Positions 9,202-18,661 of a DNA stretch of 64,000 nucleotides are shown here, piece after piece. The DNA comes from Streptomyces sp. NBC_00683 (GTDB taxonomy: Bacteria > Actinomycetota > Actinomycetes > Streptomycetales > Streptomycetaceae). Positions within the stretch are counted from its first letter, which is position 1. Each line of letters begins with the position of its first letter. The notes under the pieces are model-generated. The model was given only the letters and a program-made list of their open reading frames with translations, did no database searches and was not told where the DNA came from. The DNA lies in assembly GCF_036226745.1 (NCBI RefSeq), contig NZ_CP109013.1, positions 6,944,001-7,008,000 on the forward strand, written 5' to 3'. Both the position numbers and the translations under genes were made by a program.

Positions 9202-9846
9202 TCAGGCGGCCGGCATCAGGACGGTGTCGATGATGTAGACCGTGGCGTTGGAGGTGGGGACGTTGCCGCAGACGACCTTCGAGGAGTCGTTCACGGTGTA
9301 CGTCATGTCCGAACCGGACGTCGTCAGCTGCGTCTTGGCCAGAGTGTCGAAGGAGCCCTTGTCCAGCTGCGAGGGCGCCAGCTTCTCGCCCACGACGTGC
9401 GAGGTGAGCACCTTGGTGAGCGCGGCCTTGTCGGCGAGCAGCTTGTCCAGGTCGGCCTTCGGGATCTTGGCGAAGGCGTCGTTGGTCGGGGCGAACACCG
9501 TGATGTTCTCCGCACTGTTCAGGGTGTCGACGAGGCCGGCCTGCTTGACGGCCGTGACCAGGGTGGACAGCGCCGGGTTGTTCGACGCCGCCGTGGCGAC
9601 CGGGTCCTGGGCCATCCCCTTGAAGGAGCCCGCGCCGTCCTTCGGGACCGTCGCACAGGCCGGGCCGAAAGGCTCGTCCATGGGCTGGGTCTCCTTGGCC
9701 GGAGCGCTCGACGCGGCCTTGTCCGCACCGGAGTCGGAGCCGGACGCCGCGGTGTCGGAGTCGCTGGAGCAGGCGGTCATCGCCAGCGGCAGCAGGGCGG
9801 CGGCGGAGACGGCGACGGCGACGCGGCGGAGGTGACGGTTGTTCAT
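9202..9846 (-). CDS. Fasciclin-domain lipoprotein (MPT70/MPT83-like)
   Basis: A 214-residue protein from ATG 9846, AGGAGAA ribosome-binding site. It has a lipoprotein signal peptide ending in LAMTAC (lipidated Cys at residue 26), a Ser/Asp/Ala-rich linker, and one fasciclin domain from about residue 78 to the end with the H1 element (NITVFAPTNDAFAKI) and the H2-like element (ATVYIIDTVLMP). In mycobacteria the fasciclin proteins MPT70 and MPT83 are major targets of SigK. Here the gene lies 75 bp after the molybdopterin oxidoreductase on the same strand, so it is probably read from that gene's SigK-type promoter. Its ligand is unknown. Confidence 0.9.
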   Translation of the reverse strand: MNNRHLRRVAVAVSAAALLPLAMTACSSDSDTAASGSDSGADKAASSAPAKETQPMDEPFGPACATVPKDGAGSFKGMAQDPVATAASNNPALSTLVTAVKQAGLVDTLNSAENITVFAPTNDAFAKIPKADLDKLLADKAALTKVLTSHVVGEKLAPSQLDKGSFDTLAKTQLTTSGSDMTYTVNDSSKVVCGNVPTSNATVYIIDTVLMPAA

Positions 9847-9921
9847 GGTGTTCTCCTGTGAGGGTTGTCGATCAACAAAGGGAAAGGGGAAAGGAAGAGG
9901 GATCGGTGGAGGGCCGGGCGG

Positions 9922-11550
9922 TCAGGACACGTCGACCACCACCGAGTGCCATCCGGTCGCACCGTTCGGCACGGTGCCGACACGCTTGTCGGTCTGGGTG
10001 ACGCCGGTACGGTCGGTCGCGCGGACCTCGAGGGTGTGGTGGCCGGTCGTGGCCGGCCACTCCCACACCCATTGGCGCCAGGTGTCACGACCGGCCTCGG
10101 CGGCCAGCCGTGCGGTGTGCCACGCGCCGCCGTCCACCCGGACCTCCACCCGGGCGATGCCCCGGTGCTGGGCCCAGGCGACGCCGGCGACGGGAACGGT
10201 GCCCGCGCGCGGGGAGGCGAAGGGGCGGGGCGTGTCGATGCGTGACTGGGTCTTGACGGGAGCCTCGCGCGACCAGTCGCGCTCGACCCAGTACGCGTCG
10301 TACGCGTCGAACGTCGTGAGTTCGATGTCCCGGATCCACTTGCAGGCCGAGACGTAGCCGTACAGACCGGGAACGACCATCCGGACGGGGAAGCCGTGGT
10401 CGAACGGCAGGGGTTCGCCGTTCATGCCGACCGCGAGCAGTGCGTCGCGGCCGTCCATGACCGCCTCGACCGGGGTGCCGATCGTCATCCCGTCGACGGA
10501 ACGCGCCACGATCTGGTCCGCGGGCCCGCCCTTCGACGGGGGCTTGACCCCGGCCTCGCCCAGCAGGTCGGCCAGTCGTACGCCGATCCACCGGGCGTTG
10601 CCCACGTACGGACCACCCACCTGGTTGGACACGCAGGTCAGCGTGATGTCCCGTTCGACGAGTTCGCGCCGCAGGAGGTCCTGGAAGCCGAGGGTGACGG
10701 GTCGCGCCACCCCCTTGCCGTGGATCCGCAGCCGCCACCGGTCGGCGTCGACGCGCGGGACCACCAGGGCGGTGTCCACCCGGTAGAAGTCCTTGTTCGG
10801 CGTGACGAAGGAGCTCAGCCCCCGGATCCCCAGATCGGCGCCCTCGGGTACCGCGGGAGCCGGTGAGGCGGGTGCGGGGAGTGCGATCTCGCCGCGTGAG
10901 GCGGAGACCCCGGCCAGTTCGGACGCCTGGAGCCGACGGCCCAGGAGTCCGGCACCGGCCGAGGCCGCCGCGGCAGCGGTCGCCGCGATCACGAATCCGC
11001 GGCGGTCGAAGGCACCCCGCGCCCCGCCGTCCGTCTCACCCGCCGCGGGAGACGGGCCGGCTGCCGGCGCGAGCCGTCCGGCCAGGAGGTACAGGACCCC
11101 CGCGGCCACCACGGCGCCCACGACCGACGGCAGCGCGTCACCCGGACGGCCTTCCGGCCGCCCGGCCGCCGCGACTGCGCCGACCACACCGAAGACCAGT
11201 ACAGCCGCAGCGCCGCTCCGCCGGTGCCGCAGCGCGAGGACCCCGACCGCCATGGCGAAGAGCGCCAGGAGTACGAGGATCCCGAACTGCAGCACCAGCT
11301 TGTCGCCGGTGCCGAAGTTCCGTACGGCGAAGTCCTTGACGGCAGGGGGAGTCCGGTCGATGACCGCTCCGCCCACCGCCGTGACCGGCCCCGCCTCGGG
11401 ACGTACGGCAGCCGCGACGAGTTCGGCCACGCACAGGGCGGTGAACCCGGCGATCAGACCGCTGAGCGCGGCGAACGCGGCGCGTGCCCAGCGGGATCCC
11501 CGGGACGCGGAGGCCCCGTCCTTCTGCGAAACGTATCGGTCTGTGCTCAC
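9922..11550 (-). CDS. Membrane-anchored molybdopterin-dependent oxidoreductase (sulfite-oxidase fold)
   Basis: A 542-residue protein from GTG 11550. The first ~200 residues hold about five hydrophobic helices and a short Arg/Ala-rich segment. From about residue 245 follows a sulfite-oxidase-like molybdopterin domain with LTCVSNQVGG, whose Cys is the likely Mo ligand, then GYVSACKWIRDIEL, and a C-terminal Mo-co dimerisation domain (GIARVEVRVDGG). The catalytic part should lie outside the membrane. The electron acceptor is not identifiable. It is divergent from the lipid-modification operon, and both promoters carry the same SigK-like elements. A leaderless transcript is likely because the -10 box ends 6 bases before the GTG and no Shine-Dalgarno sequence is visible. 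Confidence 0.88.
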   Translation of the reverse strand: MSTDRYVSQKDGASASRGSRWARAAFAALSGLIAGFTALCVAELVAAAVRPEAGPVTAVGGAVIDRTPPAVKDFAVRNFGTGDKLVLQFGILVLLALFAMAVGVLALRHRRSGAAAVLVFGVVGAVAAAGRPEGRPGDALPSVVGAVVAAGVLYLLAGRLAPAAGPSPAAGETDGGARGAFDRRGFVIAATAAAAASAGAGLLGRRLQASELAGVSASRGEIALPAPASPAPAVPEGADLGIRGLSSFVTPNKDFYRVDTALVVPRVDADRWRLRIHGKGVARPVTLGFQDLLRRELVERDITLTCVSNQVGGPYVGNARWIGVRLADLLGEAGVKPPSKGGPADQIVARSVDGMTIGTPVEAVMDGRDALLAVGMNGEPLPFDHGFPVRMVVPGLYGYVSACKWIRDIELTTFDAYDAYWVERDWSREAPVKTQSRIDTPRPFASPRAGTVPVAGVAWAQHRGIARVEVRVDGGAWHTARLAAEAGRDTWRQWVWEWPATTGHHTLEVRATDRTGVTQTDKRVGTVPNGATGWHSVVVDVS

Positions 11551-11556
11551 ACCAGG

Positions 11557-11585
11557 AGTTCGGCACCGGGGGCCCCGCGGATTGG
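11557..11585 (-). promoter_or_regulatory. SigK-type promoter of the molybdopterin oxidoreductase/fasciclin unit
   Basis: On the minus strand CCAATCC (11585-11579), a 16-bp spacer, then CGAACT (11562-11557). The same elements and the same spacer length occur upstream of the flavin oxidoreductase gene and of sigK. The -10 element is 6 bases from the GTG start. Confidence 0.75.
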
Positions 11586-11619
11586 TCGTTCACCCGGTCG
11601 AAGGAAGTTCGGGCAGCGG

Positions 11620-11648
11620 CCAATCCGCGTGCCGACCTGCACCGAATG
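11620..11648 (+). promoter_or_regulatory. SigK-type promoter of the lipid-modification operon
   Basis: CCAATCC (11620-11626), a 16-bp spacer, CGAATG (11643-11648). It is the divergent twin of the site at 11557-11585 and resembles the CCATCC/CGAAT-type elements I recall for mycobacterial SigK promoters. The predicted leader of about 50 bases contains the GGAAGGAA ribosome-binding site of the first gene. Confidence 0.78.
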
Positions 11649-11707
11649 ACCTCTGAGGGGCTCTCCGGCGAGCCCCGGTCAGCCGTGGAACACCGGAAGG
11701 AACACCC

Positions 11708-12979
11708 ATGACAACGGACCGGCGGCGCACAGCCGTGGTCGGCAGCGGAGTGGCGGGGCTGACCGCCGCGTACGTCCTGGGCAGGGCGCGGGACGTGACA
11801 CTCCACGAGGCCGACGAGCGCGTCGGGGGCCACGCCCACACGCACGACCTGACCTCCTCGGACGGCCGCATACACCGCGTCGACTCGGGGTTCATCGTGC
11901 ACAACCGGCGTACCTACCCCCATCTGCTCCGGCTCTTCGACGAACTCGGTGTGGCCACCCAGGAGTCGGAGATGAGCATGTCCGTGCGCTGCGAGGGCTG
12001 CGGCCTGGAGTACGCGGGCGCCCGGGGCGCCGCGGGACTGTTCGCCCGGCCGGGCGCCGTCCTGCGGGGCCCGTACCTGCGCATGCTCGCGGAAGTGCCC
12101 CGATTCCACCGGGCCGCCCGGGCCCTGCTCGCCCGGGACGACGGCGCGTCCGCCATGACCCTGGGGCAGTTCGCCGCCCGGGGCCGCTTCTCCCCGTACT
12201 TCACGGCCCACTTCCTGACACCCATGGTCTCCGCCGTCTGGTCCTGCGACCCGGTGACCGCGCTGCACTACCCGGCCCGCTACCTCTTCCGGTTCCTGGA
12301 CCACCACGGAATGCTCTCGATCGGCGGGTCACCGGTGTGGCGGACCGTCACCGGCGGATCGCGCGCCTACGTCGACCGCATCGCCAAGCAGGTGCACTCC
12401 GTGCGTACCTCCACTCCCGTGCGGGCGGTCCGCCGGCACAGCGACGGCGTGGAGATCGTCACCGAGGACGGTGCCACGCAGGAGTACGACGAGGTGGTCG
12501 TCGCCACCCACCCCGACCAGGCGCTCCGCCTGCTCGCCGACCCCACCGACGAGGAACGGCGCACCCTCGGAGCCTTCCGCTACTCTCGCAACCCCACGCT
12601 GCTGCACACCGATACCGCGGTCCTGCCGCGCAGCCGGCGCGCCGCGGCCTCGTGGAACTACCTGATGCCGTCCTGCGCGGCAGACGCCGACCGGGTCACC
12701 GTCAGCTACGACATGAACCGGCTCCAACGGCTGGACGCCCCCGAGGGGTTCGTCGTCACGCTGAACGGTGCGGACAGGGTCGACCCCGGCCTCGTCCGGG
12801 CCCGCATGGTCTACGAACACCCCGTCTTCACCCCGGAATCGGTCGCAGCCCAGGGTCGGCTGCCGGCCCTCTCGGGACCGGTCACCGCCTACGCCGGGGC
12901 CTACCACGGCTGGGGGTTCCACGAGGACGGCTGCCGTTCCGGAGCCGAGGCGGCCGCCGCTCTGGGGGTGAACTGGTGA
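11708..12979 (+). CDS. FAD-dependent oxidoreductase (COG2907, Rv0449c-like)
   Basis: A 423-residue flavoprotein from ATG 11708. The N-terminal Rossmann motif VVGSGVAGLTAAYVL (residues 10-24), the acidic ADP-ribose contact (TLHEADERVGGHAHT) and a C-terminal GAYHGWGFHEDGCRSG segment mark the amine-oxidase/desaturase-like COG2907 family. Homologues sit beside cyclopropane-synthase-like methylases in mycobacteria (the sigK operon) and in alphaproteobacteria that make modified phospholipid acyl chains. The likely job is oxidation, reduction or desaturation of a methylated membrane acyl chain; the exact reaction is inference. It is first in a five-gene operon with 4-bp GTGA overlaps throughout. Confidence 0.88.
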   Translation: MTTDRRRTAVVGSGVAGLTAAYVLGRARDVTLHEADERVGGHAHTHDLTSSDGRIHRVDSGFIVHNRRTYPHLLRLFDELGVATQESEMSMSVRCEGCGLEYAGARGAAGLFARPGAVLRGPYLRMLAEVPRFHRAARALLARDDGASAMTLGQFAARGRFSPYFTAHFLTPMVSAVWSCDPVTALHYPARYLFRFLDHHGMLSIGGSPVWRTVTGGSRAYVDRIAKQVHSVRTSTPVRAVRRHSDGVEIVTEDGATQEYDEVVVATHPDQALRLLADPTDEERRTLGAFRYSRNPTLLHTDTAVLPRSRRAAASWNYLMPSCAADADRVTVSYDMNRLQRLDAPEGFVVTLNGADRVDPGLVRARMVYEHPVFTPESVAAQGRLPALSGPVTAYAGAYHGWGFHEDGCRSGAEAAAALGVNW

Positions 12980-13698
12980 GCGCCCTCTATCCGTGCGCCA
13001 TCACCCACGTACGCACGGCGCCCCGCCGGTACGACCTGCGGCACCGCGGCTACTTGTGGCTGATCGACCCGGACCGGCCGCCACGGCTCCCGGCCGTCCT
13101 GCGCCCGCTGGCCCGCTTCGACGCGCGCGACCACTTCGGCGGCACGGCACCCACGATCCGGGCCGGGCTGGAGCGGTTCCTCACCGCCCGGGGCATCGAC
13201 CTCGCCGACGGCACCGTCACCATGCTCACCCAGGCCCGGGTCCTCGGCCACGTCTTCAATCCGCTGACCGTCTACTGGTGCCACCGCCCCGACGGAACGC
13301 CGCTCTGCGTGGTCGCGGAGGTGCACAACACCTACGGGGAACGTCACTGCTACCTGCTGCACCCGGACGCGGCCGAACGGGCGGTGACCGGCAAGGAGTT
13401 CTACGTGTCGCCGTTCTTCCCCGTGGACGGCGACTACCGCATGCGGCTGCCCGAGCCCGACGGTGGGCTGAACCTGACGGTCCATCTGGAGCGAGCGGGA
13501 ACACGTCCGTTCACGGCGACCGTACGGGGAACGCGGCGCCCCGGTACGCCTGCCCAGCTGCTCCGGCTCTTCCTCCGCCACCCCCTTTCCACCGTTGTCG
13601 TGTCCGCCGCCATCAGGCTGCACGGCATCCGGCTGTTCCTGCGCCGGCTGCCCGTGCAGCCACGTCCCCGTCACCGCACACAGGAAGGCATGCAGTGA
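12976..13698 (+). CDS. DUF1365 family protein (Rv0448c-like)
   Basis: A 240-residue protein from GTG 12976, whose start codon overlaps the stop of the flavin oxidoreductase in GTGA. It has the DUF1365 features RRYDLRHRGYLWLIDPD near the start, RVLGHVFNPLTVYWC around residue 90, AEVHNTYGERHCYLL around residue 113 and KEFYVSPFFPVDGDY around residue 138. The family travels with COG2907 flavoproteins and CFA-type methylases in many bacteria and is suspected to take part in acyl-chain modification. No cofactor motif is obvious; the conserved His and Tyr residues could hold a metal. Confidence 0.87.
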   Translation: MSALYPCAITHVRTAPRRYDLRHRGYLWLIDPDRPPRLPAVLRPLARFDARDHFGGTAPTIRAGLERFLTARGIDLADGTVTMLTQARVLGHVFNPLTVYWCHRPDGTPLCVVAEVHNTYGERHCYLLHPDAAERAVTGKEFYVSPFFPVDGDYRMRLPEPDGGLNLTVHLERAGTRPFTATVRGTRRPGTPAQLLRLFLRHPLSTVVVSAAIRLHGIRLFLRRLPVQPRPRHRTQEGMQ

Positions 13699-15020
13699 AG
13701 GTGCCCACCTCTCCCACTCCCTCAGCCCCGCCCATGGCTCCCGCCCGCAGCGGCAGGATTCCGGCCCAGGTCAGAGGCGCCACGGCCTCCCTCACAGACG
13801 TCGACCCGGACAGATGGCCCGATGTCGCGGCCCAGCCGCGGGCGTCCGGGGTCAGGACCGCCGTAGCCGAACGGCTCGTCCGGCACGCCCTCTCACGGCT
13901 CCCGCTGCGCGCCCGGCTCGCCGGCCGCGACAGCATCGGACTGGGCGGGCCGCTCATGGAGATCCGGCGGCCCGACGCGTTCTTCCGGAGGATCGGCGTG
14001 AGCGGGCTGGTCGGCTTCGGCGAGTCGTACATGGCCGGCGAATGGGACTCGCCGGACCTCGTCGGCGTCCTGACGGTCCTCGCCGGCAACGCGGCCGACC
14101 TCGTCCCCGCGCCGTTGCAGAAGCTGCGGAGACTGTGGGCACCGCGGCAGCCCGCCGCCCAGGCCAACACCCCCGAGGGCTCGCGCGACAACATCAGCCA
14201 CCACTACGACCTGTCGAACGACCTGTTCGCCCTCTTCCTCGACGACACGCTGACGTACTCCTCCGCCGTCTTCCGCGGATTCCCCGCCGAGCACGACCTG
14301 CTGGCCGCCGGCCAGCACCGCAAGATCGACCGGCTGCTCGACATGGCCGGCGTCGCCGGGGGCACCGAGCTGCTCGAGATCGGCACCGGCTGGGGCGAAC
14401 TCGCCCTCCGTGCCGCCGCTCGCGGCGCCCGCGTCACCACGCTGACGCTCTCCCGGGAACAGCAGGAACTGGCCAGGGACAGGATCCGCGAGGCCGGCCA
14501 CGAGGACCGCGTGGACGTGCGGCTGTGCGACTACCGGGACGTCACCGGGGAGTACGACGCGGTCGTCAGCGTCGAGATGATCGAGGCCGTCGGCCAGGAG
14601 TTCTGGCCGGCGTACTTCCGCACGCTGGACCGCTGCCTCGCCCCCGGCGGGCGTATCGCGCTCCAGGCGATCACCATGCCGGACGACCGGATGCAGGCCA
14701 GCAGCAGTACCCACACCTGGATCCAGAAGTACATCTTCCCGGGCGGGCTACTCCCCTCCACCGAGTCGATCGAGCGCGTCACCACCGCGCACACGGCCCT
14801 GCGGACGAGGCAGCGCAGCACCTACGGCATGCACTACGCCGAGACCCTCAGGCTGTGGCGTGAGCGCTTCGAGGAGCGGGCGGACCAGGTCGGCGCCCTC
14901 GGCTTCGACGCGACATTCCGGCGCATGTGGACCTTCTACCTCGCCTACTCCGAGGCCGGATTCCGGTCCGGCTACCTCGACGTGCAGCAGATTCTCCTGA
15001 CCCGTGAGGACACCGCGTGA
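13695..15020 (+). CDS. Cyclopropane-fatty-acid-synthase-like methyltransferase 1 (UfaA1-like)
   Basis: A 441-residue protein from GTG 13695 (GTGA overlap with the DUF1365 gene). About 150 N-terminal residues form the lipid-binding/lid region (GFGESYMAGEWDSPDLVGVL). The SAM-dependent domain follows, with ISHHYDLSNDLFALFLDD, the SAM loop LLEIGTGWGELALRAA and VSVEMIEAVG. CFA-type enzymes transfer a methyl or methylene group from SAM to the double bond of an unsaturated phospholipid acyl chain. The mycobacterial homologue UfaA1 (Rv0447c) has been linked to tuberculostearic acid. The motif EIGTGWGE differs from the EIGCGWGG/DIGCGWGS form in the next gene, suggesting the two enzymes act on different substrates or carry out different steps. 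Confidence 0.9.
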   Translation: MKVPTSPTPSAPPMAPARSGRIPAQVRGATASLTDVDPDRWPDVAAQPRASGVRTAVAERLVRHALSRLPLRARLAGRDSIGLGGPLMEIRRPDAFFRRIGVSGLVGFGESYMAGEWDSPDLVGVLTVLAGNAADLVPAPLQKLRRLWAPRQPAAQANTPEGSRDNISHHYDLSNDLFALFLDDTLTYSSAVFRGFPAEHDLLAAGQHRKIDRLLDMAGVAGGTELLEIGTGWGELALRAAARGARVTTLTLSREQQELARDRIREAGHEDRVDVRLCDYRDVTGEYDAVVSVEMIEAVGQEFWPAYFRTLDRCLAPGGRIALQAITMPDDRMQASSSTHTWIQKYIFPGGLLPSTESIERVTTAHTALRTRQRSTYGMHYAETLRLWRERFEERADQVGALGFDATFRRMWTFYLAYSEAGFRSGYLDVQQILLTREDTA

Positions 15021-16411
15021 ACACCATCACCCACACCCCGGGGTACGGGGCCGCGCAGCGCATCGCGCCGGTCATCGAGCAGTTCCTCGGTGGGCCGCCG
15101 CCGGTCAGGATCAGGATGTGGGACGGCAGCGAGACCGGCCCCGAGGACGCACCCACGGTGCATGTCCGTTCACGCAGGGCGCTGCGCCGCCTCCTCTGGC
15201 AGCCGGGCGAACTGGGCCTGGCCGAGGCCTACATCACCGGTGACATCGACATCGCAGACAACCTCGCGGCCGGACTGCGCGCCATGCGCCGCGCATCACG
15301 GGAGCAGGGCGTGCAACTGCCCCGCCCCGGCGTCGCCGACCGCCTCCGTGCGGCCGGAACCGCCCTGCGCCTCGGAGCGGTCGGCCCCCGCCCGCCGGTC
15401 CCCGCGGCCCGGGCCGGGCTCAGCGGCGCACTGCACAGCAGGGCCCGGGACCGTGCGGCCATCAGTCACCACTACGACCTGTCCAACGCGTTCTACTCGC
15501 TGCTCCTCGACGAGACCATGGCGTACTCGTGCGGCTACTGGACCGGCACCGGGCCGGACTACGGACCGGCCGACGCCCAGCGCGACAAGTTGGAGCTGAT
15601 CTGCCGCAAGCTCGGGCTCCGGCCCGGGGCACGGCTCCTCGACATCGGCTGCGGCTGGGGGTCCCTGACGCTGCACGCGGCCGCCAGGCACGGGGTCCGC
15701 GTCACCGCGGTCACGCTGGCCAAGGAGCAGGCGGCGTACGTACGCGGCCAGGTGGCGGAGCGCGGCCTGGAGGATCTCGTCGAGGTGCACGCCTGCGACT
15801 ACCGCGACGTCGCCGCCCTGCCCGGCTTCCAGGGCGGGTACGACGCCGTGTCCACCGTCGAGATGGGGGAACACGTCGGGGACGCCGAATACCCGGCCTT
15901 CACCGCGCTGCTGCACTCGGTGCTCCGGCCGCGGGGGCGCGCCCTGGTCCAGCAGATGTCCCGCGGCTCCACCGCTCCGGGCGGCGGGGCCTTCATCGAG
16001 TCGTACATCGCGCCGGACATGCACATGCGCCCGCTCGGTGAGACGGTCGGACTCCTCGAAGGGGCGGGGCTGGAGGTACGTGACGTGGAGTCGATGCGTG
16101 AGCACTACGTGCTGACCGTCGAGGCCTGGCACCGGACCCTGGAGGAGCGCTGGCCCGAGTTCGTCGCCCTGGTCGGCGAGGAGACCGCGCGAGTGTGGCG
16201 GCTCTACCTGGTGGGGGGCGCCCTGGCGTTCGAGGAACGGCGCATGGGGGTCGACCAGATCCTGTCCGTGCGGCCGGACGCGGAAGGATCGGCCGGCCTG
16301 CCCGCCACCCGCCACGACTGGCACACGGGCCTCGGCGCCGCGGCCGGACAGGACGGTGGCGTACCCGCCGAACCGGTCATCGCGGGGCCGCGCCCGGGGT
16401 CCGGCCGGTGA
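15017..16411 (+). CDS. Cyclopropane-fatty-acid-synthase-like methyltransferase 2
   Basis: A 464-residue paralogue of the preceding enzyme, from GTG 15017 in a GTGA overlap. It keeps the CFA-synthase plan: N-terminal region LGLAEAYITGDIDI, then AAISHHYDLSNAFYSLLLDE, the SAM loop LLDIGCGWGSLTLHAA near residue 210, VSTVEMGEHVG and a C-terminal LYLVGGALAFEERRMGVDQ. The two methylases are clearly diverged, so they are not a recent duplication. A second methylase in this operon is not part of the mycobacterial sigK operon as I remember it, so two successive methylations, or methylation plus cyclopropanation, are possible. Confidence 0.9.
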   Translation: MNTITHTPGYGAAQRIAPVIEQFLGGPPPVRIRMWDGSETGPEDAPTVHVRSRRALRRLLWQPGELGLAEAYITGDIDIADNLAAGLRAMRRASREQGVQLPRPGVADRLRAAGTALRLGAVGPRPPVPAARAGLSGALHSRARDRAAISHHYDLSNAFYSLLLDETMAYSCGYWTGTGPDYGPADAQRDKLELICRKLGLRPGARLLDIGCGWGSLTLHAAARHGVRVTAVTLAKEQAAYVRGQVAERGLEDLVEVHACDYRDVAALPGFQGGYDAVSTVEMGEHVGDAEYPAFTALLHSVLRPRGRALVQQMSRGSTAPGGGAFIESYIAPDMHMRPLGETVGLLEGAGLEVRDVESMREHYVLTVEAWHRTLEERWPEFVALVGEETARVWRLYLVGGALAFEERRMGVDQILSVRPDAEGSAGLPATRHDWHTGLGAAAGQDGGVPAEPVIAGPRPGSGR

Positions 16412-17214
16412 ACGGCTTCGCCTGGGGGGCATTCGCCCAGAACCTGGCCGCGGCGGCGGGTGCCGCGCTCGCCGTCATGCTCGTGACGTTCCTGATCGCC
16501 CTGCGCAGGCGCCTGCACCGGATCGTCGACGTGGCGTGGGGCGTCGGCTTCGCGGCCGTCGCCCTCGTCTCCTACGCCATGTCGGCGCAGGACGGGGACC
16601 AGGCGCGCAGGCTCCTGGTGACCGCGCTCACCGTCGTCTGGGGGCTGCGGCTCGCCGTGCACATCGGACGGCGGGGCCGGGGCCACGGGGAGGATCCGCG
16701 GTACGCGGCCATGCTGGCCAAGGCGCCGGGCAGTCCCGACCTGTACGCCCTGCGCAAGGTGTACCTGCTGCAGGGGGCGTTGGTCTGGCTCATCTCCCTG
16801 CCGGTACAGGCCGGTTACTACCTGCCGGGGCCGCTGGACGGGTGGGCCTGGACGGGCACCGCGCTGTGGGCGGTGGGGCTCGGCTTCGAGGCGGTGGGAG
16901 ACCGGCAACTGGCCCGGTTCAGGAGCGATCCGGCGAACAAGGGCCGGATCATGGACCGGGGACTGTGGTCCTGGACCCGGCACCCGAACTACTTCGGCGA
17001 CTTCTGCGTCTGGTGGGGGCTGTTCCTCGTCGTGTGCTCCGACCCCGCGGTCGCGGCGGCGACCCTCGTGGCGCCCGTGGTGATGAGCCTCCTGCTGATC
17101 AAGGGCAGCGGCAAGGCGCTGCTGGAGCGGCACATGGCGGGACGGCCCGGCTACGACGACTACCGGGCCCGTACCAGCGGATTCCTCCCGTGGCCGCCGG
17201 GCAGGAAACGCTGA
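16408..17214 (+). CDS. DUF1295 / steroid-5-alpha-reductase-like membrane protein (Rv0446c-like)
   Basis: A 268-residue integral membrane protein from GTG 16408, overlapping the previous stop by 4 bp. It has about six to seven hydrophobic helices and the C-terminal DUF1295 signature (WSWTRHPNYFGDFCVWWG around residue 191), related to isoprenylcysteine methyltransferases and steroid reductases that bind NADPH or SAM at the membrane face. It ends the operon and is followed by a strong hairpin. In mycobacteria the same family sits directly before sigK. A reductase step on a lipid is plausible but unproven. Confidence 0.87.
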   Translation: MNGFAWGAFAQNLAAAAGAALAVMLVTFLIALRRRLHRIVDVAWGVGFAAVALVSYAMSAQDGDQARRLLVTALTVVWGLRLAVHIGRRGRGHGEDPRYAAMLAKAPGSPDLYALRKVYLLQGALVWLISLPVQAGYYLPGPLDGWAWTGTALWAVGLGFEAVGDRQLARFRSDPANKGRIMDRGLWSWTRHPNYFGDFCVWWGLFLVVCSDPAVAAATLVAPVVMSLLLIKGSGKALLERHMAGRPGYDDYRARTSGFLPWPPGRKR

Positions 17215-17217
17215 ACC

Positions 17218-17243
17218 GCCCCTGGGCGCACGCGCCCAGGGGC
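17218..17243. terminator. Hairpin terminator between convergent operons
   Basis: GCCCCTGGGCGC (17218-17229) and GCGCCCAGGGGC (17232-17243) form a perfect stem with a minimal loop. It separates the lipid operon from the convergent sigK-rskA unit. Confidence 0.75.
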
Positions 17244-17256
17244 CTCTCGCTCCGAC

Positions 17257-18012
17257 TCAGGCGCCCGGGAAATCCATCAGGGCCACGGGCGCCGAGGTCG
17301 GCTGCTCGGATCCACCCGCCGGCTCGACGGTGATGCCCATGCCGGACGCCCCGTCGACCGGCCCGTCCAGCAGTACGGCGTCGTCCGGCGCCGAGGGGTC
17401 CATCAGACCGGCGGACCGCATGGTCCCGTCGTCGTTGAACCACAGCTGGTAGACCTTGCCGCCGGGCGGCCGGGCCAGGCCGGAGGCAAGGAAGACCGCC
17501 TGGTTCTCGCTCTGGGAGACGACGACGGCCCCGCGGGCGCCGTCCTTCAGGTCGCTCGATCCGGTCCTGGCATCCGGGGCCGAGAGCACTCGGGCCAGCT
17601 GCTCGTTCTGCTGCTGTGCCCGGTCCGCCTCCTGACGGGCGTCCTGCGCGACCTGGTTCTGCCACACGGCAACCCCGCCGAACGCGGCAGCGGCGGCGAC
17701 ACAGGCGGCCAGCGCGTACGTCGACCAGCGGCCCGCCCGGCCCGCGGGGGCACCGGCGCGGCCGGTCCGGCCGTCGGCCGGCGGCTCCTGCCGTACCGTC
17801 GTGATCTCCCGCAGCACCCGGTCGCGCAAAGCGGGCGGCGCAGTGGTGGACACCGCGAGCCCGAGCCGGACGGCGGTGGCGGACAGCTCCCGTACCTCCT
17901 GGGCGCACGCCTCGCAGGCATCCAGGTGCCGCTCGAACGCGAGGCGTTCGTCCTCCGGCAGGGCATGCAGGGCATAGGCCCCGGTCAGCGTGTGCAGATC
18001 GGCGGTGCTCAT
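17257..18012 (-). CDS. rskA: RskA-like anti-sigma-K factor
   Basis: A 251-residue protein from ATG 18012, sharing ATGA with the end of sigK. The N-terminal ~90 residues form the cytoplasmic anti-sigma domain with the HxxxCxxC pattern (FERHLDACEACAQEV), followed by one membrane helix (YALAACVAAAAAFGGVAVW) and an external C-terminal RskA domain (GKVYQLWFND, GMGITVEPAGGS). In mycobacteria RskA holds SigK inactive and is removed by regulated proteolysis. Translational coupling keeps it in balance with SigK. The external domain should sense an envelope signal. Confidence 0.93.
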   Translation of the reverse strand: MSTADLHTLTGAYALHALPEDERLAFERHLDACEACAQEVRELSATAVRLGLAVSTTAPPALRDRVLREITTVRQEPPADGRTGRAGAPAGRAGRWSTYALAACVAAAAAFGGVAVWQNQVAQDARQEADRAQQQNEQLARVLSAPDARTGSSDLKDGARGAVVVSQSENQAVFLASGLARPPGGKVYQLWFNDDGTMRSAGLMDPSAPDDAVLLDGPVDGASGMGITVEPAGGSEQPTSAPVALMDFPGA

Positions 18013-18593
18013 GCGTTCACCCCCAGGCAGTCGCGCAGCCGGATCAGCCCGTCGCGCAACCGGGTCTTGATCGTTCCCAGTGGTACGGAGAGCAGCTCGC
18101 CGACCTCCCGATAGGTCAGCCCCCGGTAGTACGCCAGGGTCACGGACTGCCGCTGGAGCTCGGAGAGCGTCCGCAGGCAGCGCCGGACCTGTTCCCTCTC
18201 CAGCCGGGACTCGACCTGTTCGGAGACCTCGTCGAAGTCGGGCGTGCGGTCCAGCAGCGCGGCCCTGTGCTCCCGCGCCGCGCTCGCCTCGGCCGACCGG
18301 ACCCGGTCGACGGCGCGGTGGTGGGCCAGGGTGAGCACCCAGTTCATGGCACTGCCCCGGGACGGCTGGAAGCGGGCGGCCGTGCGCCACACCTCGACGA
18401 GCACCTCCTGGGCGACCTCCTCGGACTGGGCGGGGTCGCGCAGGACACTGCGCACCAGGCCGAGGACCGACCCGCTGACCATGTCGTACACCTCGGTGAA
18501 GGCGTCCTGGTCCCCACGGGCGACCATGACGAGCAGCGCCTGCAGATCGGGCCCCGGCGCGGGTGCCCCGCTGATGTATACGGCCTCTTTCAC
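18009..18593 (-). CDS. sigK: ECF RNA polymerase sigma factor, SigK-like
   Basis: A 194-residue ECF sigma factor from GTG 18593 with GGGAGGAA about 8 bases upstream. Region 2 (FTEVYDMVSGSVLGLV, then EVAQEVLVEVWRTA) and region 4 (LSELQRQSVTLAYYRGLTY, then IKTRLRDGLIRL) are complete. Its gene pairing with rskA and its closeness to the COG2907-DUF1365-CFA-DUF1295 operon reproduce the mycobacterial sigK arrangement. An open frame extends 34 codons upstream, but it runs through the promoter and lacks a ribosome-binding site. The gene is preceded by the same promoter elements as the other two units, so it is probably autoregulated. Confidence 0.93.
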   Translation of the reverse strand: MKEAVYISGAPAPGPDLQALLVMVARGDQDAFTEVYDMVSGSVLGLVRSVLRDPAQSEEVAQEVLVEVWRTAARFQPSRGSAMNWVLTLAHHRAVDRVRSAEASAAREHRAALLDRTPDFDEVSEQVESRLEREQVRRCLRTLSELQRQSVTLAYYRGLTYREVGELLSVPLGTIKTRLRDGLIRLRDCLGVNA

Positions 18594-18632: not shown

Positions 18633-18661
18633 GATTCGAAGCCGGCGGCCGTACGGATTGG
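18633..18661 (-). promoter_or_regulatory. SigK-type promoter of sigK-rskA
   Basis: On the minus strand CCAATCC (18661-18655), a 16-bp spacer, CGAATC (18638-18633). Identical spacing to the two divergent promoters at 11557-11648 points to autoregulation by SigK. Confidence 0.78.

What the first reader, a model, noticed from the sequence alone, without database searches (positions are those of the whole stretch)
9202..18593. Self-contained SigK/RskA regulon combining lipid methylation, a Mo-enzyme and a fasciclin lipoprotein
Seen here: sigK-rskA next to COG2907-DUF1365-CFA-CFA-DUF1295 in one overlapping operon, and divergently a molybdopterin oxidoreductase and a fasciclin lipoprotein. Known: in M. 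tuberculosis sigK-rskA adjoins Rv0449c-Rv0446c (COG2907, DUF1365, UfaA1, DUF1295), and SigK drives the fasciclin proteins MPT70/MPT83 from another locus. Here the two arms are joined and a Mo-enzyme and a second methylase are added. I infer an envelope-stress programme that remodels unsaturated phospholipid chains, with the periplasmic-side redox enzyme and fasciclin protein as output or protection.
Basis: partly seen in the sequence, partly recalled or inferred. Interest (0 to 1): 0.82.

Follow-up and report, generated by a model that had tools for sequence, protein, structure and literature searches.

The report
Likely SigK-controlled furan-fatty-acid gene cluster
A soil-type actinomycete keeps, in one 9.4-kb stretch, a stress switch (SigK/RskA) next to genes like those that other bacteria use to make protective furan fatty acids, plus a surface protein and a molybdenum enzyme, which suggests what this puzzling switch may be for.

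Summary
Nine genes at 9202-18593 form three transcription units, each headed by the same SigK-type promoter, CCAATCC-N16-CGAA(T/C). These three sites are the only exact matches in the 8.52-Mb genome, so 'self-contained SigK regulon' is well supported.

The reading changes in two ways. First, the joined arrangement is not unusual: the full module recurs in 18 of 75 DUF1365 loci, and fasciclin beside sigK-rskA is already in print (PMC7509140). Second, the lipid operon is best read as a furan-fatty-acid pathway. COG2907 matches UfaD, DUF1365 is the UfaO domain (PMC7380195), and CFA1 groups with ufa-linked alphaproteobacterial methylases. Elsewhere this gene set answers singlet oxygen or light (RpoE-ChrR, LitR). 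Photolyase genes lie in 13 of 81 loci, some behind SigK-type promoters. Light induces SigK-site fasciclin genes in Mycobacterium kansasii (PMC9861118). I propose SigK/RskA as the actinobacterial counterpart of the singlet-oxygen switch.

The Mo-enzyme has a sulfite-oxidase fold but lacks sulfite-site residues in 22 of 22 members. No lipid or expression data exist for this organism, and its own photolyase lies elsewhere without a SigK-type site.

The parts
9202..9846 (-). Fasciclin-domain lipoprotein (MPT83-like); lipobox-like LAMTAC
   Evidence: PF02469 114.4 bits; only one in the genome; sequence
9922..11550 (-). Membrane-anchored sulfite-oxidase-fold Mo-enzyme, five hydrophobic N-terminal segments, sulfite-site residues replaced
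   Evidence: PF00174 149.4 bits; NCBIfam below the sulfite dehydrogenase and MsrP cut-offs; residues and segments; model and Foldseek
11558..11585 (-). SigK-type promoter of the Mo-enzyme/fasciclin unit; seven bases from the GTG, so perhaps leaderless
   Evidence: exact CCAATCC-N16-CGAAY
11620..11647 (+). SigK-type promoter of the lipid operon
   Evidence: exact CCAATCC-N16-CGAAY
11708..12979 (+). UfaD-like FAD/NAD oxidoreductase (COG2907)
   Evidence: PF01593; 38% identity to a UfaD beside sigma-ChrR in Rhodobacterales
12976..13698 (+). UfaO-family protein (DUF1365)
   Evidence: PF07103 225.9 bits; 31-37% identity to four alphaproteobacterial ones
13695..15020 (+). CFA1, UfaM-type methylase
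   Evidence: PF02353; tree and residues
15017..16411 (+). CFA2, second CFA-family methylase of open function
   Evidence: PF02353; separate clade
16408..17214 (+). DUF1295 membrane protein (reductase/methyltransferase superfamily), role unknown
   Evidence: PF06966 235.7 bits
17257..18012 (-). RskA anti-sigma factor, one hydrophobic segment, H-x3-C-x2-C motif
   Evidence: NF052375 230.6 bits
18009..18593 (-). SigK (ECF sigma factor), both redox cysteines kept
   Evidence: NF007228 291 bits; start and sequence; cysteines
18634..18661 (-). SigK-type promoter of sigK-rskA (self-activation)
   Evidence: exact CCAATCC-N16-CGAAY

Best explanation
A SigK/RskA-controlled photo-oxidative stress regulon whose main output is a furan-type fatty acid. 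RskA, a membrane anti-sigma factor, holds SigK. A signal (proposed: singlet oxygen, light or lipid peroxide damage) leads to loss of RskA. SigK then transcribes three units from matching promoters: itself, the lipid operon, and the Mo-enzyme with the fasciclin lipoprotein. In the lipid operon CFA1 (UfaM) methylates an unsaturated phospholipid chain, UfaD desaturates it to a methylated diene, and UfaO (DUF1365) adds oxygen to close the furan ring, which can scavenge singlet oxygen. CFA2 and DUF1295 would tailor the chain; the Mo-enzyme would repair an oxidised envelope component. Shown here: gene content, promoter sites, homology, recurrence, photolyase linkage. Inferred: the signal, the chemical product, the Mo-enzyme substrate, the roles of CFA2, DUF1295 and fasciclin.
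For: Three exact promoters, unique in the genome; 94 such sites in 81 loci against a shuffle mean of 3.1, and 74 of them within 300 bases upstream of module genes. UfaD and DUF1365 homology to alphaproteobacterial ufa loci with ChrR-type anti-sigma genes; DUF1365 named as the UfaO domain; UfaD-DUF1365 in one open frame in 13 loci; CFA1 grouped with ufa-linked methylases, support 0.989. Photolyase in 13 of 81 loci, in three directly behind rskA, in four behind SigK-type sites. The R. sphaeroides singlet-oxygen regulon has the same kinds of genes including a fasciclin, and the R. capsulatus sigma/anti-sigma pair induced by photo-oxidative stress is closer to M. tuberculosis SigK/RskA than to R. 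sphaeroides RpoE/ChrR. Light induces mpk83 and mpk70, which have SigK sites, in M. kansasii.
Against: No lipid, expression or stress data for this organism. The single photolyase of this genome lies at 1.18 Mb without an exact SigK-type site. In M. kansasii the 14 light-induced genes include neither dipZ nor any sigK-locus gene. The lipid core lacks a nearby SigK in 33 of 75 loci, and SigK-type sites before UfaD are absent from f64, f65, f3.g213, f77.g181, f77.g240, f88 and f95. R. sphaeroides itself was not compared. CFA1 alone has support of only 0.586. Recalled: the M. tuberculosis CFA1 counterpart UfaA1 was reported to make tuberculostearic acid, and Streptomyces membranes hold few unsaturated chains.
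Confidence: 0.55

Rival explanations
1. The operon makes a saturated methyl-branched or cyclopropane chain (for example a 10-methyl fatty acid), with DUF1295 as reductase, as a general membrane adjustment under SigK.
For: Both CFAs belong to PF02353; DUF1295 matches reductase and methyltransferase families. Recalled: UfaA1 of M. tuberculosis was reported to make tuberculostearic acid.
Against: UfaD and UfaO families are conserved with CFA1 and fused to each other, which a simple methylation does not need. CFA1 groups away from E. coli Cfa and has lost Cys139 and His266.
Confidence: 0.2
2. The regulon answers disulfide or general envelope redox stress, not light or singlet oxygen; the sensor is the SigK cysteine pair or the RskA zinc-type motif.
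For: The SigK cysteines are kept here and in 34 of 45 SigK and are needed for activity in M. tuberculosis SigK (PMC7509140 passages). RskA has H-x3-C-x2-C in 33 of 47.
Against: Both features are lost in whole families that keep the module: cysteines in 11 of 11 f77, the motif in 14 of 14 f3. Photolyase linkage fits light better.
Confidence: 0.18
3. Neighbourhood without shared purpose: the lipid operon and the SigK-fasciclin-Mo cassette are separate units that travel together.
For: Lipid core without SigK in 33 of 75 loci; fasciclin-Mo-SigK-RskA without the lipid operon in L097; plasmid-borne copies.
Against: The same promoter stands before all three units here, and before UfaD in families whose sigK is elsewhere: f2 2/2, f77.g170 6/6, f68 3/6, f5 1/2.
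Confidence: 0.07

Closest known systems
Mycobacterial SigK/RskA regulon (sigK locus plus mpt83/mpt70) and the mpt83-sigK-rskA cassette
   Different: Here fasciclin, a Mo-enzyme and CFA2 are in the same locus; RskA keeps H-x3-C-x2-C, which all 14 f3 members lack.
RpoE-ChrR (ECF11) singlet-oxygen regulon of Rhodobacter and relatives
   Same: UfaD, UfaO, a UfaM-type methylase, and in some loci fasciclin, DUF1295 and photolyase.
   Different: Regulator pair is SigK/RskA, not ECF11/ChrR: the window RskA scores 19 against a ChrR cut-off of 124.5.
LitR light regulon of Pseudomonas
   Same: PhrB, SDR, FAD oxidoreductase and UfaM, light-induced (PMC9758184 passages).
   Different: MerR-type regulator; no SigK, fasciclin or Mo-enzyme described in the passages seen.
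Sulfite oxidase/dehydrogenase family (SorA, SorT)
   Same: Fold and the Mo-ligand Cys in 22 of 22.
   Different: N-terminal membrane part; Asp for His57, no Arg109, no Tyr236 in 22 of 22.

Membership tests
SigK/RskA system | SigK family score above the curated cut-off | tested here: met
   291 against 226 bits
SigK/RskA system | adjacent anti-sigma factor of the RskA type with one membrane segment | tested here: met
   NF052375 230.6 against 100; one hydrophobic segment at 98-116
SigK/RskA system | SigK-dependent promoter activity | not testable with these tools
   only sequence sites seen
Furan fatty acid pathway (UfaM, UfaD, UfaO) | UfaO domain (DUF1365) | tested here: met
   PF07103 225.9 against 25 bits; domain identity from PMC7380195 section 13
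Furan fatty acid pathway (UfaM, UfaD, UfaO) | UfaD orthologue beside UfaO | tested here: met
   38% identity to a sigma-ChrR-linked UfaD; adjacent or in one frame. R. sphaeroides protein itself not compared
Furan fatty acid pathway (UfaM, UfaD, UfaO) | UfaM orthologue | tested here: inconclusive
   CFA1 groups with methylases near alphaproteobacterial UfaD, support 0.989; the characterised UfaM was not in hand
Furan fatty acid pathway (UfaM, UfaD, UfaO) | furan fatty acid product | not testable with these tools
   needs lipid analysis
RpoE-ChrR (ECF11) regulon | ChrR-type anti-sigma factor | tested here: not met
   TIGR02451 19 against 124.5 bits: works like it, is not a member
Cyclopropane fatty acid synthase (Cfa) | family score and residues Cys139, Glu239, His266, Tyr317 | tested here: not met
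   NF008686: CFA1 231.8, CFA2 213.6, cut-off 400; Glu and Tyr kept, His266 is Gln in both, Cys139 kept only in CFA2 of the window. Residue roles recalled
FufM (dimethyl-furan methylase) | sequence relation of CFA2 to FufM | not tested
   no FufM sequence in hand
Sulfite dehydrogenase | sulfite-site residues and family score | tested here: not met
   SorA 122.6 against 600; His57, Arg109 and Tyr236 not kept in 22 of 22
MsrP | family score | tested here: not met
   42 against 207

The most novel reading that the evidence does not exclude
SigK/RskA is the general actinobacterial light/singlet-oxygen switch: a non-orthologous regulator in place of RpoE-ChrR on the same furan-lipid, fasciclin and photolyase output. 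As described for ChrR, the furan lipid or its oxidation product feeds back to trigger RskA turnover, and the Mo-enzyme is a new type of envelope oxide reductase.
Probability: 0.35. Interest if true: 0.82.

Novelty: new variant of a known kind. Interest (0 to 1): 0.62.

Why it matters
The stimuli of SigK-RskA are described as obscure (PMC9861118). Reading its lipid operon as a furan-fatty-acid pathway, with photolyase in the same regulon in one family and beside it in others, gives a concrete inducer and a concrete product to test in harmless actinomycetes. It would also suggest why fasciclin proteins are SigK targets, and would show two unrelated sigma/anti-sigma pairs converging on one gene set.

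Tried and rejected
Rejected: uniqueness of the joined arrangement. Rejected: sulfite dehydrogenase or MsrP as the identity of the Mo-enzyme. Rejected: a MerR/LitR-type regulator as the 254-aa neighbour of f64 loci; its sequence reads as an alpha/beta hydrolase, by eye only.

Papers: passages seen of PMC7380195, PMC7074977, PMC9861118, PMC7509140, PMC4067076, PMC9758184, PMC5241685, PMC9205884, PMC10940516, PMC9323897, PMC6852236 and PMC8591293; whole sections read only of PMC7380195, PMC9861118 and PMC6852236. In PMC9323897 a furan fatty acid was isolated from an actinobacterium (Agrococcus), but its authors found no UfaO-like enzyme. In PMC8591293 (light in freshwater Actinobacteria) none of cyclopropane, DUF1365, fasciclin or furan occurs. 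PMC2258859, on SigK regulon evolution, is not held. Searches for a published link between SigK and furan lipids or singlet oxygen: 15 papers, 14 listed; only PMC7074977 bears on it; 11 listed, none makes the link judging by titles and abstract starts; 25 of 1,272 listed, none makes the link on the same basis. Subscription papers are not covered.

Full report
WHAT IS THERE. The window is 6,944,001-7,008,000 of an 8.52-Mb single-contig genome. The genus is not given. I call it Streptomyces-like from its size, a site mirrored near both ends and the closest plasmid matches, which are Streptomyces; this is inference, and so are all genus guesses for coded families (f1 is the window's own family). 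Nine genes lie between 9202 and 18593: fasciclin lipoprotein and Mo-oxidoreductase on the minus strand; divergently COG2907, DUF1365, CFA1, CFA2 and DUF1295, overlapping by four bases each; then convergently sigK-rskA. The flanking genes are unrelated (DSHCT helicase, ADP-ribosylglycohydrolase, siderophore-interacting protein, 5'-3' exonuclease).

ONE REGULON. CCAATCC-N16-CGAAY occurs three times in the window, all exact: 11558-11585(-), 11620-11647(+) and 18634-18661(-), the heads of the Mo/fasciclin unit, the lipid operon and sigK-rskA. The genome has no other exact match. The Mo-enzyme start codon is seven bases behind its -10, so that transcript may be leaderless. I fetched 80 stretches of up to 20 kb: 74 around DUF1365, of 88 matches outside the window among 296 class-level genomes, plus six fasciclin-centred ones. 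With the first 28 kb of the window these are 81 loci, 1.58 Mb. They hold 94 sites of the CCAATCC/CCATCC family against a mean of 3.1 (largest 6) in 20 shuffles; 74 of 94 lie within 300 bases upstream of a module gene: UfaD 31, Mo-enzyme 14, SigK 12, fasciclin 11, DUF1365 6. Of 66 UfaD genes 31 have such a site: f1 9/14, f2 2/2, f3.g218 3/3, f3.g3 1/3, f5 1/2, f68 3/6, f70 6/6, f77.g170 6/6; and none in f3.g213 (2), f64 (5), f65 (4), f77.g181 (9), f77.g240 (2), f88 (1), f95 (1). Families f2, f5, f68 and f77.g170 have no SigK in the fetched stretch. In f77.g181 UfaD follows RskA on the same strand and the sites stand before the Mo-enzyme and fasciclin.

NOT UNIQUE. Of 75 DUF1365 loci, 66 have UfaD, 65 CFA1, 52 DUF1295, 42 SigK, 26 fasciclin and 21 the Mo-enzyme. 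Fasciclin is in 23 of 42 loci with SigK and 3 of 33 without; the Mo-enzyme in 19 of 42 and 2 of 33. The Mo-enzyme has a fasciclin gene within 600 bases on the same strand in 21 of 22 loci. UfaD, DUF1365, CFA1, SigK, RskA, fasciclin and Mo-enzyme occur together in 18 loci of three coded families, the window included. The sample was chosen on DUF1365, so these are not genome-wide rates. Separately, SigK is in 159 of 296 genomes; of 93 genomes with both SigK and fasciclin in the printed lists, 55 have them within 15 kb and 32 within 1.5 kb (both lists were cut off). The mpt83-sigK-rskA cassette is published (PMC7509140 passages).

FURAN FATTY ACIDS. In R. sphaeroides UfaM, UfaD and UfaO turn cis-vaccenate into a methylated furan fatty acid; UfaD (RSP1091) has an NAD-FAD domain and UfaO (RSP1090) contains DUF1365 (PMC7380195 passages and section 13). 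The window UfaD is 38% identical to the UfaD beside sigma-ChrR in Qingshengfaniella, and its DUF1365 is 31-37% identical to four from alphaproteobacterial loci with a ChrR- or cupin-type anti-sigma gene. UfaD and DUF1365 share one open frame in 13 loci (in one it runs on into CFA1), and DUF1365 and CFA1 in two more. In a tree of 128 methylases CFA1 (65) and CFAs near alphaproteobacterial UfaD (22) form one side, CFA2 (40) and E. coli Cfa the other, support 0.989; CFA1 alone has only 0.586. E. coli Cys139 is Ser or Ala in 65 of 65 CFA1 and 21 of 22 alphaproteobacterial ones, Cys in 33 of 40 CFA2; His266 is Gln in 65 of 65, 21 of 22 and 40 of 40. I read CFA1 as UfaM; CFA2 is open. R. palustris adds a second methyl group with FufM (PMC7380195 section 14), so a dimethyl furan is one possibility for CFA2, without sequence evidence.

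WHY PHOTO-OXIDATIVE. In 85 alphaproteobacterial UfaD loci (the 80 best of a capped scan plus five plasmids, so not a random sample, and holding the queries themselves) ChrR is in 76, DUF1365 in 80, fasciclin in 5, photolyase in 4. The R. sphaeroides singlet-oxygen regulon holds RSP_1090, RSP_1091, cfaS, phrA and a fasciclin protein; the R. capsulatus sigma and anti-sigma factors, both induced by photo-oxidative stress, are closer to M. tuberculosis SigK and RskA than to the R. sphaeroides pair, although R. capsulatus has no RSP_1090/1091 homologue (PMC7074977 passages). Pseudomonas mendocina light-induces ufaM and phrB about 25-33-fold (PMC9758184 passages). Chlamydomonas singlet-oxygen genes include two CFAs, DUF1365, a fasciclin-like protein and MSRA3 (PMC4067076 passages). 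In the actinobacterial loci photolyase is present in 13 of 81. In three same-genus loci (L081, L090, L092) it follows rskA on the same strand by 25-53 bases. In four f70 loci (L130, L133-L135) a divergent pair of SigK-type sites stands before photolyase and an NmrA/DUF2867 protein (Pfam run on L134). In M. kansasii 20 minutes of light raised only 14 genes: eight of the carotenoid locus, phrB-tspO-mmpL2, one PE gene, and mpk83 and mpk70, which have putative SigK sites; the authors call the benefit unclear (PMC9861118 section 10). Against: dipZ did not respond, no sigK-locus gene is among those 14, and in the window's own genome the single photolyase match lies at 1.18 Mb beside an NmrA/DUF2867 protein without an exact SigK-type site.

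MO-ENZYME. All 22 members keep the Mo-ligand Cys and the Arg of FYR, but all have Asp where SorA has His57, lack Arg109, and have Val, Ile, Leu or Phe where SorA has Tyr236 (residue roles recalled). NCBIfam scores are far below the sulfite dehydrogenase and MsrP cut-offs. The model (pLDDT 72) matches sulfite oxidases. Repair of an oxidised envelope component is a guess; msrA beside the ufa locus of Mesorhizobium terrae is a parallel, not evidence of the substrate.

SENSING. RskA carries H-x3-C-x2-C in 33 of 47 members and in none of 14 f3 members; the two SigK cysteines are kept in 34 of 45 and lost in all 11 f77 members. Sensor details thus differ between lineages while the output stays. The genome has M50 (site-2-type) proteases, which are common, so this is no specific support. 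In R. sphaeroides furan-lipid synthesis genes are required for ChrR turnover by singlet oxygen (PMC6852236 section 16); a like feedback on RskA is my boldest reading and untested.

VERDICT. Real, orderly and recurrent. The joined arrangement is common; the new point is the identity of the lipid arm and the inferred light/singlet-oxygen role of SigK. I saw no paper that makes this link in the listings.

Noticed in passing
L293 4696-6719 (G000:C1 about 3,888,700-3,890,700); site at L293 6752: A second SigK-RskA pair in the same genome (SigK 274.6 bits), with a one-mismatch SigK-type site just behind it, before a small, apparently secreted protein.
   Followed up: partly
L294 4790-7875 (G000:C1 about 1.18 Mb): The genome's only photolyase match lies beside an NmrA/DUF2867 protein, the same pair that f70 loci carry behind SigK-type sites.
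   Followed up: partly
G000:C1 9006-9033 and 8510627-8510654: The same 28-base string lies at mirrored positions near both contig ends, which suggests terminal inverted repeats of a linear chromosome.
   Followed up: no
L162, L163: Plasmid-borne sigK-rskA plus lipid operon: a 39-kb Streptomyces plasmid and a Tsukamurella plasmid.
   Followed up: no
L103, L104, L106-L110, L112: Eight f3.g3 loci keep only DUF1365-sigK-rskA, without UfaD and CFA1 in the fetched 20 kb, so DUF1365 may have a role of its own there.
   Followed up: no
L120 7918-8682 and related loci: An alpha/beta-hydrolase-like gene lies next to the lipid core in 12 loci (median 43 bases away), most of them without SigK.
   Followed up: partly
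[not shown]
   Followed up: partly
L089, L094: A different ECF sigma factor (171-190 bits to the SigK profile) lies directly before UfaD in some same-genus loci.
   Followed up: no
L131 7296-8150; L132 about 8050: SigK-type sites before a CHRD-like secreted protein in one f70 genome (Pfam run on the L131 copy, below the curated cut-off).
   Followed up: no
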